From NCBI RefSeq assembly GCF_020405205.1, contig NZ_CP084469.1:682001-746000 (forward strand): a stretch of DNA of 64,000 nt. Direction: 5' to 3'. This stretch comes from Natrinema salinisoli. GTDB taxonomy: Archaea; Halobacteriota; Halobacteria; Halobacteriales; Natrialbaceae. A model generated the notes under the pieces. That model made no database searches and had not been told where the DNA came from. It was given only the letters and a program-made list of their open reading frames with translations. Shown here one piece after another: positions 13,074 through 50,461 of this stretch (the stretch's first letter is position 1; every line of letters starts with the position of its first letter). The position numbers and the translations under genes were made by a program.

Positions 13074-14546
<1,473 letters not shown>

Positions 14547-14553
14547 ACAGACC

Positions 14554-14577
14554 GGGATCAGGCCGTCGTGCCTGACC
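14554..14577 (+). other. Spacer hairpin just after 16S
   Basis: GGGATCAGGC and GCCTGACCC pair across CGTCGT directly downstream of the 16S 3' end. A second hairpin, GTGGCGC-TTT-GCGCCAC, follows at 14589-14605. Both lie inside the 16S processing stem and probably help fold or trim the transcript. Confidence 0.45.
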
Positions 14578-14608
14578 CACCTTGACTCGTGGCGCTTTGC
14601 GCCACGCA

Positions 14609-14642
14609 GTCCACGTTCGATCGACCAGCGTTCGGCCGATCG
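14609..14642 (+). other. 16S processing stem, 3' arm
   Basis: GTCCACGTTCGAT and CCGATCG pair with the 5' arm at 12968-13004. The arm ends about 60 bases before the spacer tRNA. Confidence 0.75.
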
Positions 14643-14703
14643 GGCACCTTTGAACTACCGAGGCTAACACAATACGCTCTGTCCGCCCATCGTGGGCGGA
14701 CGT

Positions 14704-14775
14704 GGGCCCATAGCTCAGTGGTAGAGTGCCTCCTTTGCAAGGAGGATGCCCAGGGTTCGAATCCCTGTGGGTCCA
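14704..14775 (+). tRNA. tRNA-Ala(UGC)
   Basis: A 72-nt cloverleaf. Acceptor GGGCCCA pairs with TGGGTCC with one G-T wobble, and the discriminator base is A. The D arm contains AGCTCAGTGGTAGAG, the anticodon stem is CCTCC/GGAGG with loop TTTGCAA, and the T arm is CAGGGTTCGAATCCCTG. The anticodon TGC at 14736-14738 reads alanine codons. No CCA is encoded and no intron is seen. Its position between 16S and 23S is the standard haloarchaeal arrangement. Confidence 0.97.
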
Positions 14776-14884
14776 TGTCTCGGAGGAAATCTCGGATCGT
14801 GCCCCTTAAGTGGGAGACGGCCCGACGATTGAATCCGAACGAACCGATGCACCACCCCGTGTAAACGCGGGTGGGAAGGGTTAA

Positions 14885-14908
14885 TGCATGCCGCGTCTAC
14901 GGCGTGCA
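14885..14908 (+). other. Spacer hairpin between tRNA-Ala and 23S
   Basis: TGCATGCCG and CGGCGTGCA pair with one wobble across CGTCTA. It lies just outside the 23S processing stem. Role unknown; it may separate the tRNA and 23S processing domains. Confidence 0.4.
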
Positions 14909-14919
14909 GATGAGACCGT

Positions 14920-14962
14920 GTGTACGTGTAGTCCAGGCGTCCACTGGACCCGTTCCCGGGTC
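14920..14962 (+). other. 23S processing stem, 5' arm
   Basis: GTACGTGTAGTCCAG and GGACCCGTTC here are complementary to the strand at 17946-17990 with short mismatched bulges. The stem brackets 23S and should form the bulge-helix-bulge cleaved by the splicing endonuclease. Confidence 0.75.
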
Positions 14963-15007
14963 ACTACGTGGTCGTAACATCCGTTACGACTGCCGATCCG
15001 ATGAACG

Positions 15008-17920
<2,913 letters not shown>

Positions 17921-17945
17921 TTCATACTACATCGCATTGGATCCG

Positions 17946-17990
17946 TGACGCGAGAACGGGTCCGGACGCAAACTGGACTACACGTATACT
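17946..17990 (+). other. 23S processing stem, 3' arm
   Basis: GAACGGGTCC and CTGGACTACACGTA pair with the 5' arm at 14920-14962. It lies between 23S and 5S. Confidence 0.75.
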
Positions 17991-18050
17991 ACGGTCTTGG
18001 ACACACCGACCGATATTGGTATCACAACGGTTCGATCCCGTTGATCGGCA

Positions 18051-18172
18051 TTACGGCGGCCACAGCGGCGAGGTTCCTCCCGTACCCATCCCGAACACGG
18101 AAGATAAGCTCGCCTGCGTTACGATCAGTACTGGAGTGGGCGACCCTCTGGGAAATTCGTTTCGCCGCCACC
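18051..18172 (+). rRNA. 5S ribosomal RNA
   Basis: About 122 nt. The sequence TTACGGCGGCCACAGCGGCG starts the molecule, CCCGTACCCATCCCGAACACGG is the conserved loop, and the 3' end TTCGCCGCCACC pairs with the 5' GGCGGC. It is the last rRNA gene. No tRNA-Cys, often found after 5S in haloarchaeal operons, follows. Confidence 0.96.
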
Positions 18173-18184
18173 ATTCATACTCAC

Positions 18185-47198: not shown

Positions 47199-47744
47199 AT
47201 GGTTCAGTGCGAGATGTGTGGGGCCGAGACGTCGTCCCCGAACACCATCAAAGTCGAGGGCGCGAAGCTAGACGTGTGTTCGAATTGCACGGATTTCGGC
47301 ACTGAAGTCAAAGACACGTCGAGTTCGAGCGGGTCGACGAAGTACTCGACCGGCTCGAGTTCGTCCTCGTCCGGTGGGGGCGGCCAGTCGTCGGGATCGA
47401 GTGCGAGTTCATCGAGTTCGGGCGGCTCGAGCCAGCGCCGCTCGGACATGTTCGACGACATGGACGAGCTCGCGACCGATTACGACGACCGCGTCCGCAA
47501 CGCCCGCGAGAACGAGGGCCTCAGTCAGTCGGATCTCGCGAACGAACTCAACGAGAAGGCCAGTCTGATCCGCAAGATCGAACGCGGAGATACGCTCCCG
47601 AGCGACGAGGTCCAGTCCAAACTCGAGAACTTCCTCGAGATTTCCCTGAGCGCCGAGGGAAGCTCCGGCGACGATTCGGAGTGGTCGGGTGGCTCCTCGT
47701 CCGGGAGTTACACGCTCGGTGACGTGGTCAAGCGCAAGGACTGA
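47199..47744 (+). CDS. Archaeal multiprotein bridging factor aMBF1
   Basis: A 181-residue protein. An N-terminal zinc ribbon (MVQCEMCGAET...DVCSNC) is joined to a helix-turn-helix of the Cro/C1 type (ENEGLSQSDLANELNEKASLIRKIERGDTLPS). Both are joined by a 40-residue Ser/Gly-rich linker (residues 40-79). The C-terminus is also Ser/Gly-rich and ends GSYTLGDVVKRKD. aMBF1 is a TBP/transcription-linked co-regulator. The very low-complexity linkers are unusual and flexible. Confidence 0.94.
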   Translation: MVQCEMCGAETSSPNTIKVEGAKLDVCSNCTDFGTEVKDTSSSSGSTKYSTGSSSSSSGGGGQSSGSSASSSSSGGSSQRRSDMFDDMDELATDYDDRVRNARENEGLSQSDLANELNEKASLIRKIERGDTLPSDEVQSKLENFLEISLSAEGSSGDDSEWSGGSSSGSYTLGDVVKRKD

Positions 47745-47820: not shown

Positions 47821-48465
47821 ATGTTCGTCCTCGTTAACCTGAAGACGTATCCGTGTGATCCAGTCGACGTTGCGGCCGCCGTCCGCGACGTCAACGAAAC
47901 CACTGACGCCCGTCTGGCCGTCGCGCCGCAGGCGGCACACATAGAGCGCGTCGCCGAGACGGGTGCGGAGACCTGGGCCCAGCACGTCGACTCGATCGAG
48001 CACGGGAGCAACACCGGCCACACCCTTGCCGAGAGCGTCGCGGACGCTGGCGCGGCCGGAACACTCATCAATCACTCCGAGCGACGGCTGAAACTGGCCG
48101 ACATCGACGGCGCAGTCCGGGCGGCCGAACGGGCGGATCTCGAGACGGTCGTCTGTGCGAACAACCCGGCCCAGATCGGTGCGGCCGCGGCGCTGGGCCC
48201 CGATGCCGTCGCCGTCGAACCGCCGGCACTCATCGGAACCGGAACGCCGGTGAGCCAGGCCGACCCGGAGGTCGTCGAAGGCGCCGTCGAAGCAGCGTCG
48301 AACGTCGACTCCGAGGTGTCGGTCCTCTGTGGCGCCGGTATCAGTACGGGGGACGACGTCGTCGCGGCCGGCGAACTCGGCGCCGAGGGCGTTCTGCTCG
48401 CCAGCGGCGTCGCGAAGGCGGACGACCCGAAAGCGGCACTCGAGGACCTGGTCGAACCGCTCTGA
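47821..48465 (+). CDS. tpiA: Triosephosphate isomerase
   Basis: A 214-residue archaeal-type TIM barrel, shorter than bacterial TIM (about 250), as is normal. VLVNLKTYP is the first strand with the active-site Lys, [11 protein letters not shown] holds the catalytic His, [12 protein letters not shown] the catalytic Glu, and [13 protein letters not shown] the phosphate-binding loop. It interconverts dihydroxyacetone phosphate and glyceraldehyde 3-phosphate in central metabolism. It is a single gene. Confidence 0.96.
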
Positions 48466-48541: not shown

Positions 48542-49030
48542 ATGACTGACGAAGGGGCCGATACTGAGAGCGAGACCGACGTCGACGGCGGGACCGACGC
48601 GGAGGAGCGACCCGTGGGCGTCGCGCTCGAGAACAGGCTGATGAGCCACGGCTACTACGTCACGTCGTTCACCTGGATGGACGACGAGGCAGCCGAGACG
48701 ACCGGGGACGGAACCGTAGCGGAGACCGAACAGCGCGGAGTGACACCCGAAGACGGGGCCGGAATCGAACTCGAGTACGAAGCCGTCACGGACGCGCCGG
48801 GTGTGACGAGCAACGAGGTCGGAGCCGTCCTCCGAACGCTGTTGGGGATCGGCGAGGAACGGGAGTGGACGCCCGGTCGACTCGAAGTGACGTCGGTAAC
48901 GACCGACGGCGACGTCCGGGGCTGGTGGTACGTCGAACGCGAGTGGTTCGACCGGCTCGGTGACGACCTCTCGCAGGTCGAATTTTCCGAACGCGTTCTG
49001 ACAACCGTAAAACATCACCAGAGCGAATGA
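48542..49030 (+). CDS. Conserved haloarchaeal hypothetical protein (DUF8159-like)
   Basis: The likely protein is 162 residues from ATG 48542. An acidic N-terminus of 25 residues is followed by LENRLMSHGYYVTSFTWMDD, IELEYEAVTDAPGVTSNEVG, and a C-terminal GWWYVEREWFDRLGDDLSQV. The mixed alpha/beta pattern resembles a haloarchaeal family remembered as DUF8159, but this was not checked. No motif suggests a function. Confidence 0.65.
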   Translation: MTDEGADTESETDVDGGTDAEERPVGVALENRLMSHGYYVTSFTWMDDEAAETTGDGTVAETEQRGVTPEDGAGIELEYEAVTDAPGVTSNEVGAVLRTLLGIGEEREWTPGRLEVTSVTTDGDVRGWWYVEREWFDRLGDDLSQVEFSERVLTTVKHHQSE

Positions 49031-49100: not shown

Positions 49101-49739
49101 ATGACCGGAGAACAGGTGTACGTTTCTCACGCGCCCGGCGACCTCGAACTCGTCCAGGATCTGTTCTCGACGGTCAAGAACTTCCCGTTCGGCGTCCACA
49201 TCGCCCTCGAGGAGATCGAGTCCGGCCGGTCGCGAACGCGACTCGAGGGGCGACTCGCCAACAGTGACGTCGTCGTCGCAGTGCTAACGGAAGACGCGGC
49301 CGACAACCGGTGGATCAATCAGGAGATCGGATACGCGGTGGCCAAGGGCATCCCCGTCTTGCCGCTTCACGACGAGGATCGCAACCGCCGCGGGTTCATC
49401 GGCGACGTCGAGGGCGTAGCGATCGATCGAAACAATCTCACGTTTACGATTTTCAACCTGCTGTGTCGACTCCGGAGCGAGCTCGCCCCGCTGGGCGCAC
49501 TGTCGGTCCCGAACTGGTACATTCGATTCCCGTGTACGGTCCCCGACTGTGACCAGCCGGTGACGCTCGAACTCGAGCAGGGACAGACGAAACTCTGGAA
49601 ACTCCACAGCCACGGCAAACACCTGACGACGTCGTGTGCGGTCTGTGGCTCGAGGTACTACTTCAACCCGGCGACGATCGGCTTTGTCGGCCGCGAGGAC
49701 GGCGTGACCGCTCAGTCGTCCTCTCGGAGCCGCTCGTAG
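49101..49739 (+). CDS. TIR-domain protein with C-terminal zinc ribbon
   Basis: A 212-residue protein. Residues 4-115 form a TIR-like fold: EQVYVSHAPGDLELVQDLF, SDVVVAVLTEDAADNRWINQEIGYA (with E75 at the usual NADase glutamate position) and PVLPLHDED. Residues 140-195 add a zinc ribbon with C145, C150, C179 and C182. TIR domains often cut NAD+ or signal in defence. No Thoeris-like or other defence partner is beside it. Its end overlaps the convergent J-domain gene by 28 bases. Confidence 0.82.
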   Translation: MTGEQVYVSHAPGDLELVQDLFSTVKNFPFGVHIALEEIESGRSRTRLEGRLANSDVVVAVLTEDAADNRWINQEIGYAVAKGIPVLPLHDEDRNRRGFIGDVEGVAIDRNNLTFTIFNLLCRLRSELAPLGALSVPNWYIRFPCTVPDCDQPVTLELEQGQTKLWKLHSHGKHLTTSCAVCGSRYYFNPATIGFVGREDGVTAQSSSRSRS

Positions 49740-50461
49740 GCCTTATTTACGAGTTTGAACGCCGATTTGCTCCCGCTTTCCCGGTCCGGATGGGCGCGTT
49801 TCACTTGCTCGTGAAACGCCTCGCGGATCGCGCCGTCGCTCGCGTTCGCATCGACGCCGAGTACCTCGCGGGCTCGCGTCTCTCGCATGGCCACGTCGGC
49901 GACGATTCCCTTCTCTTCGGCGTCGGCCTTGCAGTCGGAGCAGAGCTTCTCCGTCCGTTCGTCGATCGTGGTGATCCGAAAGAGTTCCTCGGAGACCCAC
50001 TCCCGACACTGGCCACAGAGGGTTTTGTCCGCGTCAGTGTCGGGAGTGGCGGAGTGGTTCGACTCGTCCGTCGCGGTCCATCTGGTAGCGGTCCGGTCGG
50101 AGTCGCGCGTCGCGTTCGAACCGGTAGCAGCACCTGCTGTACTGTCTCCGGCGGCCGCGTCGTCACCGTCACCAGCCGGGGCTTCGGCTGCACACTCCGG
50201 ACAACAGGTCAGTACGGTCCCGTCTTCGAGCACCACGTCCTCGAGTTCTTCCGTGAGATAGGTGCCGGTACAGCCGTCGCAGGCGTCCCGCCGCTGGTCG
50301 AGCGAGTTCTCGTTCCGCGCGGTCGCTCTGGCGTGGGGCTCACAGTCCGGACAGCACACGACCTGTTCGCCGTCCGGCATCGTCACTGGTGTCAGCTCCT
50401 CGAACGCAACCATTCGGCCGCACCCGTCGCAGTCGACACGATGTTCGCTGACCACAGCCAT
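49712..50461 (-). CDS. J-domain protein with three zinc knuckles
   Basis: The likely protein is 249 residues from ATG 50461. It contains three Cys pairs forming small zinc ribbons (CDGCGRM...CCPDC; CDGCTGTY...CCPEC; CGQCREW...CSDC), a Ser/Thr/Asp-rich linker, then a C-terminal J domain: TRAREVLGVDANASDGAIREAF and RAHPDRESGSKSAFKLVNKAY, with the HPD tripeptide that stimulates Hsp70. It may act as a DnaK co-chaperone. It faces the TIR gene tail to tail, and their ends overlap. Confidence 0.87.
   Translation of the reverse strand: MAVVSEHRVDCDGCGRMVAFEELTPVTMPDGEQVVCCPDCEPHARATARNENSLDQRRDACDGCTGTYLTEELEDVVLEDGTVLTCCPECAAEAPAGDGDDAAAGDSTAGAATGSNATRDSDRTATRWTATDESNHSATPDTDADKTLCGQCREWVSEELFRITTIDERTEKLCSDCKADAEEKGIVADVAMRETRAREVLGVDANASDGAIREAFHEQVKRAHPDRESGSKSAFKLVNKAYERLREDD

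What the first reader, a model, noticed from the sequence alone, without database searches (positions are those of the whole stretch)
49101..49739. Stand-alone TIR domain joined to a zinc ribbon
Residues 4-115 read as a TIR domain with E75 at the position of the NADase glutamate, followed by a CxxxxC...CxxC zinc ribbon. No Thoeris, CBASS-like or restriction gene is beside it. The zinc ribbon could sense nucleic acid or mediate oligomerisation, so this may be a compact haloarchaeal NAD+-depleting or signalling protein. The function is inference.
Basis: partly seen in the sequence, partly recalled or inferred. Interest (0 to 1): 0.55.

Follow-up and report, generated by a model that had tools for sequence, protein, structure and literature searches.

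The report
Conserved archaeal TIR–zinc-ribbon protein
The gene encodes a small TIR protein with a zinc-binding tail, of a family that many salt-loving and methane-making archaea keep as an ordinary chromosomal gene, which is unexpected because microbial TIR proteins are best known from virus defence.

Summary
Window 49101-49739 encodes a 212-aa protein: TIR domain (TIR_2 1.5e-9; AlphaFold TIR fold), E75 at the catalytic-glutamate position, and a Cx4C...CxxC zinc-ribbon-like tail. It is carried by 87 of 101 sampled genomes of its family and by 7 genomes of two other haloarchaeal families, usually downstream of tpiA. Two methanogen families carry homologs with both domains; in one order 33 of 33 high-quality genomes match (one only in part), and 15 of 26 inspected lie immediately upstream of an RNA-methyltransferase/L3-L4-L23 cluster. 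Between the groups identity is about 24%; the invariant residues are M1, E75, G77, A79, R125, W139 and the four cysteines. In haloarchaea a zinc-finger J-protein accompanies it in 79 of 94 carriers. No phage record matches, and no defence gene was found beside it. Best reading: a zinc-ribbon-controlled TIR NAD+ glycohydrolase/cyclase with a chromosomal regulatory role; activity is inferred, and two residues needed in AbTir are not kept. No paper found here describes the family. Boldest open reading: an archaeal NAD-RNA de-capping enzyme.

The parts
49101..49739 (+). TIR-zinc-ribbon gene (212 aa)
   Evidence: ORF; conserved M1; Pfam
49110..49454 (+). TIR domain, residues about 4-118
   Evidence: TIR_2 1.5e-9 over residues 6-93; AF2 model and fold searches
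49311..49313 (+). W71 codon, tryptophan of the WxxxE motif
   Evidence: invariant in 49/49 haloarchaeal proteins; absent from the 17 methanogen rows of A2
49323..49325 (+). E75 codon, position of the catalytic glutamate
   Evidence: aligned with the Glu of AbTir W..NYE; invariant 37/37
49515..49694 (+). zinc-ribbon-like domain, residues about 139-198
   Evidence: C145-x4-C150 ... C179-x2-C182 invariant; CxxC...CxxC in methanogen homologs; AF2 of the domain alone
49712..50461 (-). zinc-finger J-protein (DnaJ domain at the C-terminus), tail-to-tail partner gene
   Evidence: Pfam DnaJ 2e-10; adjacent in 72 of 94 carriers
48542..49030 (+). upstream gene of unknown function, also kept in 10 of 13 loci without the TIR gene
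47821..48465 (+). tpiA, syntenic anchor
   Evidence: TIM 2.9e-36; synteny
47199..47744 (+). aMBF1 (multiprotein bridging factor), syntenic anchor
   Evidence: TIGR00270 7.1e-44

Best explanation
An old, mostly vertically kept archaeal enzyme: an N-terminal TIR domain that cleaves the nicotinamide-ribose bond of NAD+ (or a close derivative) with E75 as catalytic glutamate, joined to a zinc ribbon that binds a partner (nucleic acid or protein) and sets when the TIR domains assemble and become active. Because it is single-copy, syntenic, under purifying selection and paired in haloarchaea with a zinc-finger J-protein, it most likely works in routine stress or NAD-linked regulation and not as a mobile anti-virus cassette. 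Shown: TIR fold (predicted), conservation of the glutamate and four cysteines, chromosomal conservation, co-occurrence with the J-protein gene. Inferred: NAD+ as substrate, the zinc ribbon's role, oligomerisation, the stress role. Haloarchaeal members keep the WxxxE tryptophan reported as important in AbTir for making cyclic ADP-ribose, so they may make a cyclic product; the methanogen members aligned lack it and should make plain ADP-ribose or act on another nucleotide.
For: TIR_2 hits 37 of 37 family members. Profile A1 finds TcpB, AbTir and BtTir among solved structures (4e-5 to 6e-4), with E75 aligned to the AbTir glutamate. Foldseek's first 17 rows are SPARTA, SARM1, RPS4, BtTir and BtpA/TcpB TIR structures; VIA Z 11-13 to TIR domains. 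E75 and the four cysteines are invariant at 23-28% identity between groups. Prevalence: 87 of 101 family f1 genomes; 33 of 33 high-quality genomes of a methanogen order (one of them, G787, matches only over residues 1-71). Synteny. J-protein in 79 of 94 carriers, 7 of them unlinked. dN/dS 0.03-0.25. No phage match; one 35-residue partial match in viral contigs, in a scan that finds close relatives only. Papers, passages only: PMC11374754 (AbTir E208, W204), PMC10937652.
Against: Two residues whose mutation inhibits AbTir, R151 and D167, align with Q19 and A35 here (alignment; PMC11374754 passages). The methanogen members aligned lack the tryptophan and differ in the segment after the second strand. 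The E-x-G-x-A segment and the fold fit nucleoside 2-deoxyribosyltransferases nearly as well: Nuc_deoxyrib_tr hits 20 of 37 members, VIA Z tied within 1 with most TIR rows. The gene is missing, with its surroundings intact, in 13 of 13 non-carrier loci examined, so it is dispensable. No receptor for a cyclic ADP-ribose signal was identified, but that search was uninformative because its control did not ring. Joint loss of the adjacent J-protein gene can be one deletion.
Confidence: 0.48

Rival explanations
1. A nucleotide N-glycosidase of the deoxyribosyltransferase/DNPH1 kind with TIR-like N-terminal features: it cleaves a base from a nucleoside or its monophosphate (housecleaning), not nicotinamide from NAD+.
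For: E75-x-G77-x-A79 invariant in 37 of 37; Nuc_deoxyrib_tr matches 20 of 37 members; VIA Z 11-12 to 2-deoxyribosyltransferases and DNPH1, tied within 1 with most TIR rows; housekeeping-type conservation.
Against: TIR_2 scores higher in the window protein (38.9 bits against 23.6, the latter under its cut-off) and hits all 37 members; the N-terminal SHA..D box is TIR-like; Foldseek ranks 18 TIR or ThsB rows before the first deoxyribosyltransferase.
Confidence: 0.2
2. A chromosomally fixed antiviral or cell-suicide TIR: the zinc ribbon senses an infection product and the TIR depletes NAD+.
For: Known prokaryotic TIR systems act in defence (glossary passages of PMC11249213; wider claim recalled); ThsB-like PADLOC hits, best 6.7e-6.
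Against: No defence gene among seven scanned neighbours; synteny across genera; near-universal in one methanogen order; no phage hits and only a whole-block copy on one 987-kb replicon among plasmids besides a distant bacterial TIR; low dN/dS.
Confidence: 0.15
3. A non-catalytic TIR scaffold whose zinc ribbon and TIR domain only mediate protein assembly, for example with the J-protein.
For: AbTir R151 and D167 equivalents not kept; J-protein co-occurrence.
Against: E75 invariant across haloarchaea and methanogens at 23-28% identity, hard to explain without catalysis or ligand binding.
Confidence: 0.12

Closest known systems
AbTir / BtTir / TcpB (BtpA) bacterial TIR proteins
   Same: TIR fold, WxxxE-type motif with the glutamate at the same place, best profile matches among solved structures
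   Different: No zinc ribbon mentioned in the passages read; the R151 and D167 equivalents of AbTir are not kept here
Archaeal TcpA (Theionarchaea) and TcpO (Methanobrevibacter olleyae)
   Same: Archaeal TIR proteins; NADase shown experimentally, and NAD-RNA de-capping for TcpA (PMC10937652, passages read)
Thoeris ThsB
   Same: TIR-like domain, Pfam ThsB_TIR over cut-off
   Different: No ThsA-like gene among seven neighbours; adds a zinc-ribbon-like tail; conserved in a housekeeping block
Nucleoside 2-deoxyribosyltransferase / DNPH1
   Same: Fold and the E-x-G-x-A segment
   Different: Under the Pfam cut-off in the window protein; N-terminal box is TIR-like

Membership tests
TIR domain enzymes (TIR_2) | TIR fold | tested here: met
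   AF2 pLDDT 81, pTM 0.78; Foldseek/VIA matches to SARM1, AbTir, SPARTA TIR; TIR_2 37/37
TIR domain enzymes (TIR_2) | catalytic glutamate | tested here: met
   E75 aligned to the AbTir Glu, invariant 37/37
TIR domain enzymes (TIR_2) | tryptophan of WxxxE | tested here: met
   49/49 haloarchaeal; not met in the 17 methanogen rows of A2
TIR domain enzymes (TIR_2) | further residues needed in AbTir (R151, D167) | tested here: not met
   align with Q19 and A35; their need is reported for AbTir and TcpC (PMC11374754, passages), so this is not a defining feature of all TIR enzymes
TIR domain enzymes (TIR_2) | NAD+ cleavage | not testable with these tools
   needs an assay
Thoeris | ThsA effector gene adjacent | tested here: not met
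   PADLOC scan of seven neighbours, none ThsA; annotated neighbours of a Natrinema copy are housekeeping or hypothetical genes
Thoeris | STALD/SLOG receptor elsewhere in the genome | tested here: inconclusive
   0 of 17 genomes, but no control rang
Nucleoside 2-deoxyribosyltransferase (PF05014) | Pfam gathering score | tested here: not met
   window protein 23.6 bits against 28.8; 20 of 37 members match at E 0.01 or better, best 3.1e-7
Nucleoside 2-deoxyribosyltransferase (PF05014) | fold distinguishable from TIR | tested here: inconclusive
   VIA Z tied within 1
Zinc ribbon | two CxxC-type knuckles | tested here: met
   Cx4C...CxxC here, CxxC...CxxC in methanogens, cysteines invariant
Zinc ribbon | match to a known zinc-ribbon family or fold | tested here: inconclusive
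   no Pfam hit in the window protein, Zn_ribbon_3 in 7/37 members; no fold match for the domain alone, best Foldseek E 0.59, best Z 3.1

The most novel reading that the evidence does not exclude
The family is an unrecognised archaeal enzyme that removes nicotinamide from NAD-capped RNA: the zinc ribbon holds the RNA and the TIR domain converts the NAD cap to a (cyclic) ADP-ribose cap, which Nudix enzymes then remove. This would tie a TIR domain to everyday RNA turnover or translation instead of immunity, in line with its place upstream of an RNA methyltransferase and the ribosomal L3 cluster in one methanogen order.
Probability: 0.07. Interest if true: 0.85.

Novelty: new variant of a known kind. 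Interest (0 to 1): 0.55.

Why it matters
Prokaryotic TIR proteins are mostly discussed as immune parts (recalled; also the passages of PMC11249213). Here is a TIR architecture that two distant archaeal groups retain, with the catalytic glutamate and a zinc site among the few things fixed between them. If active, it would point to a non-immune, cell-physiological use of TIR NAD+ chemistry in archaea. It also offers small soluble proteins, with natural losses inside genera g8, g10 and g15, on which to test it. PMC10663502 (passages read) leaves open whether a non-characterised NADase or heat converts NAD-RNA to ADPR-RNA in Sulfolobus acidocaldarius; for archaea that carry this family, it is a candidate that can be tested directly.

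Tried and rejected
Rejected: (1) Horizontally mobile defence gene: synteny, prevalence, no phage match, one partial viral-contig match and low dN/dS speak against it. One of two plasmid hits is a 987-kb Natrinema thermotolerans replicon that carries the whole housekeeping block; the other is a bacterial TIR at 34% identity over residues 5-123. (2) A conserved operon partner in methanogens: in the 19 of 20 methanogen loci where my ORF caller found the gene (L127 was missed there and found by tblastn), no neighbour cluster is shared by more than 6 loci. (3) Artefact of a long ORF in GC-rich DNA: M1 and the frame are conserved in all 49 proteins of A1.

Led nowhere: Foldseek and VIA searches with the isolated C-terminal domain gave nothing better than E 0.59 and Z 3.1. 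The STALD receptor search rang nowhere, controls included. The G070 match (E 3e-4) translates to an unrelated frame and was dropped. TIR-only hits in families f16, f17, f21, f23, f33 and in some f13 and f27 genomes do not reach the zinc ribbon and are not counted as members. Other archaeal phyla could not be reached with the handles available, so the family's outer limits are unknown.

Paper searches for the family: 'TIR domain' with haloarchaea/NADase, archaea/zinc ribbon, Methanosarcina, Thoeris/archaea/stand-alone, archaeal genomes/NAD/defense, TcpA/archaeal TIR/NADase, arCOG, Natrinema/Haloferax/halophilic archaea (88, where 15 of 761 papers were listed). No listed title or abstract start describes it; only open-licence PMC papers are searched. 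Of papers I read only passages found by term: PMC10663502, PMC7145615, PMC10937652, PMC11374754, PMC7159879, PMC11249213.

Full report
What is there. Window 49101-49739 (+) encodes a 212-aa protein. Pfam TIR_2 matches residues 6-93 (1.5e-9, 38.9 bits, cut-off 28), ThsB_TIR matches 27-93 (2.2e-6, 28.5 bits, cut-off 21.2) and Nuc_deoxyrib_tr is under its cut-off. E75 lies in RWINQEIGYA, and cysteines 145, 150, 179 and 182 form Cx4C...CxxC. It is the only TIR_2 match (E up to 0.01) in its 4.7-Mb genome, and a tblastn-type search finds no second copy better than E 0.1.

Structure. An AlphaFold2 model from 49 sequences has mean pLDDT 81.3 and pTM 0.78. Foldseek's best PDB matches are SPARTA TIR, SARM1, plant RPS4, BtTir and BtpA/TcpB TIR domains (E from 7.7e-5), with ThsB at rank 18 and the first deoxyribosyltransferase at rank 19. 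VIA-align gives Z 13.2 (rmsd 3.4, 145 residues) to a SPARTA TIR and 11-12.6 to SARM1, AbTir, deoxyribosyltransferases and DNPH1, so the fold alone does not separate TIR from deoxyribosyltransferase. The family profile aligned to AbTir puts E75 on its W..NYE glutamate and W71 on its tryptophan. Counting along that alignment (numbering fixed by residues named in PMC11374754 passages), AbTir S140 corresponds to S9 and R215 to K82, while R151 and D167, whose mutation inhibits AbTir, correspond to Q19 and A35. The isolated tail models at pLDDT 82 but matches no solved fold.

Distribution in haloarchaea. With the window protein as query, 95 of 391 genomes of the class match. One of these (G070) is spurious, leaving 94: 87 of 101 genomes of the window's own family f1 (Natrialbaceae, judged from the named loci), 5 in f7 and 2 in f10. 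All 21 genomes of the window's own genus in the sample, itself included, carry it. In most of these the longer order ligA or hisC-kinase-CDP-alcohol transferase-aMBF1-tpiA-(162-aa gene)-TIR/zinc is kept; in six stretches (L072-L075, L080, L081) only tpiA of the upstream block is in place, and the two f10 loci have lost the context. NCBI already names one copy 'TIR domain-containing protein' and its neighbour 'J domain-containing protein'. Of the 14 f1 genomes without the gene, tpiA was located in 13; in these hisC to tpiA are in place in 13 of 13 and the TIR/zinc gene is absent in 13 of 13. The gene is therefore dispensable and was lost, or never gained, more than once; genera g8, g10 and g15 hold both states.

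Conservation. In 49 aligned haloarchaeal proteins M1, H10, W71, E75, W139 and the four cysteines are among the invariant residues. In the 79 rows, which contain duplicates and one frameshifted row, E75 is kept in 79 and each of the four cysteines in 78. dN/dS against seven relatives is 0.03-0.25.

Methanogens. A profile search of 392 genomes of the phylum found homologs covering both domains in families f13 and f27 (E 7e-17 to 3e-11); those extracted are 186-196 aa from the start chosen. MCR alpha is present in 14 of 15 such genomes tested and absent from the two haloarchaea included (the exception is draft genome G688). With the combined profile, 54 of 111 f13 genomes match at 1e-10 (47 of 85 of high quality); four of the 54 (G454, G566, G670, G703) match over the TIR part only, and G713, G722 and G745 have partial or split copies. 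In the order of G459, 47 of 50 genomes match, 33 of 33 of high quality and 11 of 11 genera; G778 matches over the TIR part only, G787 over residues 1-71 only, and G770 and G788 in part. In the phylum sample, 73 of 392 genomes match at 1e-12; 64 have a match that reaches position 165 or beyond, all in f1, f7, f13 or f27. Across the 37 sequences of A2 only M1, E75, G77, A79, R125, W139 and the four cysteines are invariant; W71 is absent from all 17 methanogen rows.

One family or two fusions? TIR halves of the two groups match by hhalign at E 2.9e-18 and by HMM in 17 of 17 and 20 of 20 members. The zinc halves match weakly: hhalign E 6e-5 with probability 65%, HMM matches at 1e-3 or better in only 4 of 17 and 2 of 20 members (best shuffled control 2.1), though the cysteines and a DPxT motif align. 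The branch between the groups is very long. A single origin of the domain pair is the simpler reading but is not proved.

Context. In 15 of 26 distinct f27 genomes inspected, the gene lies on the same strand immediately upstream (starts 611-949 bp apart) of an RNA methyltransferase followed by ribosomal L3, L4 and L23 (one contig ends after L3); in 11 of 26 it does not (genes named by Pfam in L132). In f13 the context differs by genus. In haloarchaea the tail-to-tail neighbour is a J-domain protein with several cysteine pairs. Of 94 carriers, 79 have it, 72 adjacent and 7 unlinked, and 15 do not; 2 genomes have the J-protein alone (from typed coordinates), and G362, an 85%-complete non-carrier, has a partial J-protein match below the threshold. 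Within f1 the table both/TIR only/J only/neither is 72/15/2/12 (Fisher 9e-7, not corrected for kinship; proximity alone can cause joint loss). The retained unlinked pairs, in genus g18 and family f10, are the better hint of a functional link. Seven methanogens tested have no match to this J-protein, and ten haloarchaea of other families have none or a J-domain-only match.

Mechanism. An invariant glutamate in a TIR fold, with the tryptophan in haloarchaea, argues for NAD+ glycohydrolase or cyclase chemistry; PMC11374754 (passages) reports that W204 of AbTir is needed for 2'cADPR and notes that TcpC keeps the residue yet makes non-cyclic ADPR. The zinc site is the second invariant element and most simply controls activation by a ligand. 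The fixed place in haloarchaea, near-universal presence in one methanogen order and the lack of matches in phages make a routine role more likely than an antiviral one. None of this shows activity, and the loss of the AbTir R151/D167 equivalents and the likeness to deoxyribosyltransferases keep the rivals alive.

RNA reading. PMC10937652 (passages) reports that AbTir, BtpA, PdTir and archaeal TcpA remove nicotinamide from NAD-RNA, whereas TcpO does not; PMC10663502 (abstract and passages) reports NAD-RNA in Haloferax volcanii and Sulfolobus acidocaldarius and leaves open how NAD-RNA becomes ADPR-RNA in the latter. A TIR joined to a possible nucleic-acid-binding zinc ribbon is a natural candidate in archaea that have it. 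Against this: NAD-RNA also occurs in archaea that probably lack the family (from the family-level distribution; Haloferax itself was not checked), and no evidence here favours RNA over free NAD+; hence the low probability.

Noticed in passing
window 13074-18173 (+): Complete rRNA operon: 16S 13074-14547, tRNA-Ala(TGC) 14703-14776, 23S 15002-17922, 5S 18052-18173.
   Followed up: partly
window 49712-50461 (-): Zinc-finger J-protein family: 81 of 391 class genomes match at 1e-15, and 79 of these 81 carry the TIR/zinc gene.
   Followed up: partly
window 48542-49030 (+): 162-aa protein between tpiA and the TIR/zinc gene with no Pfam family over cut-off; present in 10 of 13 loci without the TIR gene.
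   Followed up: no
L187 (CP031304.1:624576-643175): A Natrinema thermotolerans replicon deposited as a 987-kb plasmid carries ligA, hisC, tpiA and neighbours, so it looks like a chromosome part or chromid.
   Followed up: no
G660:C2:3177713-3178180; G745:C63:1849-2404: Possibly decaying copies in f13 genomes: one match stops before the second cysteine pair, one is split into two pieces.
   Followed up: no
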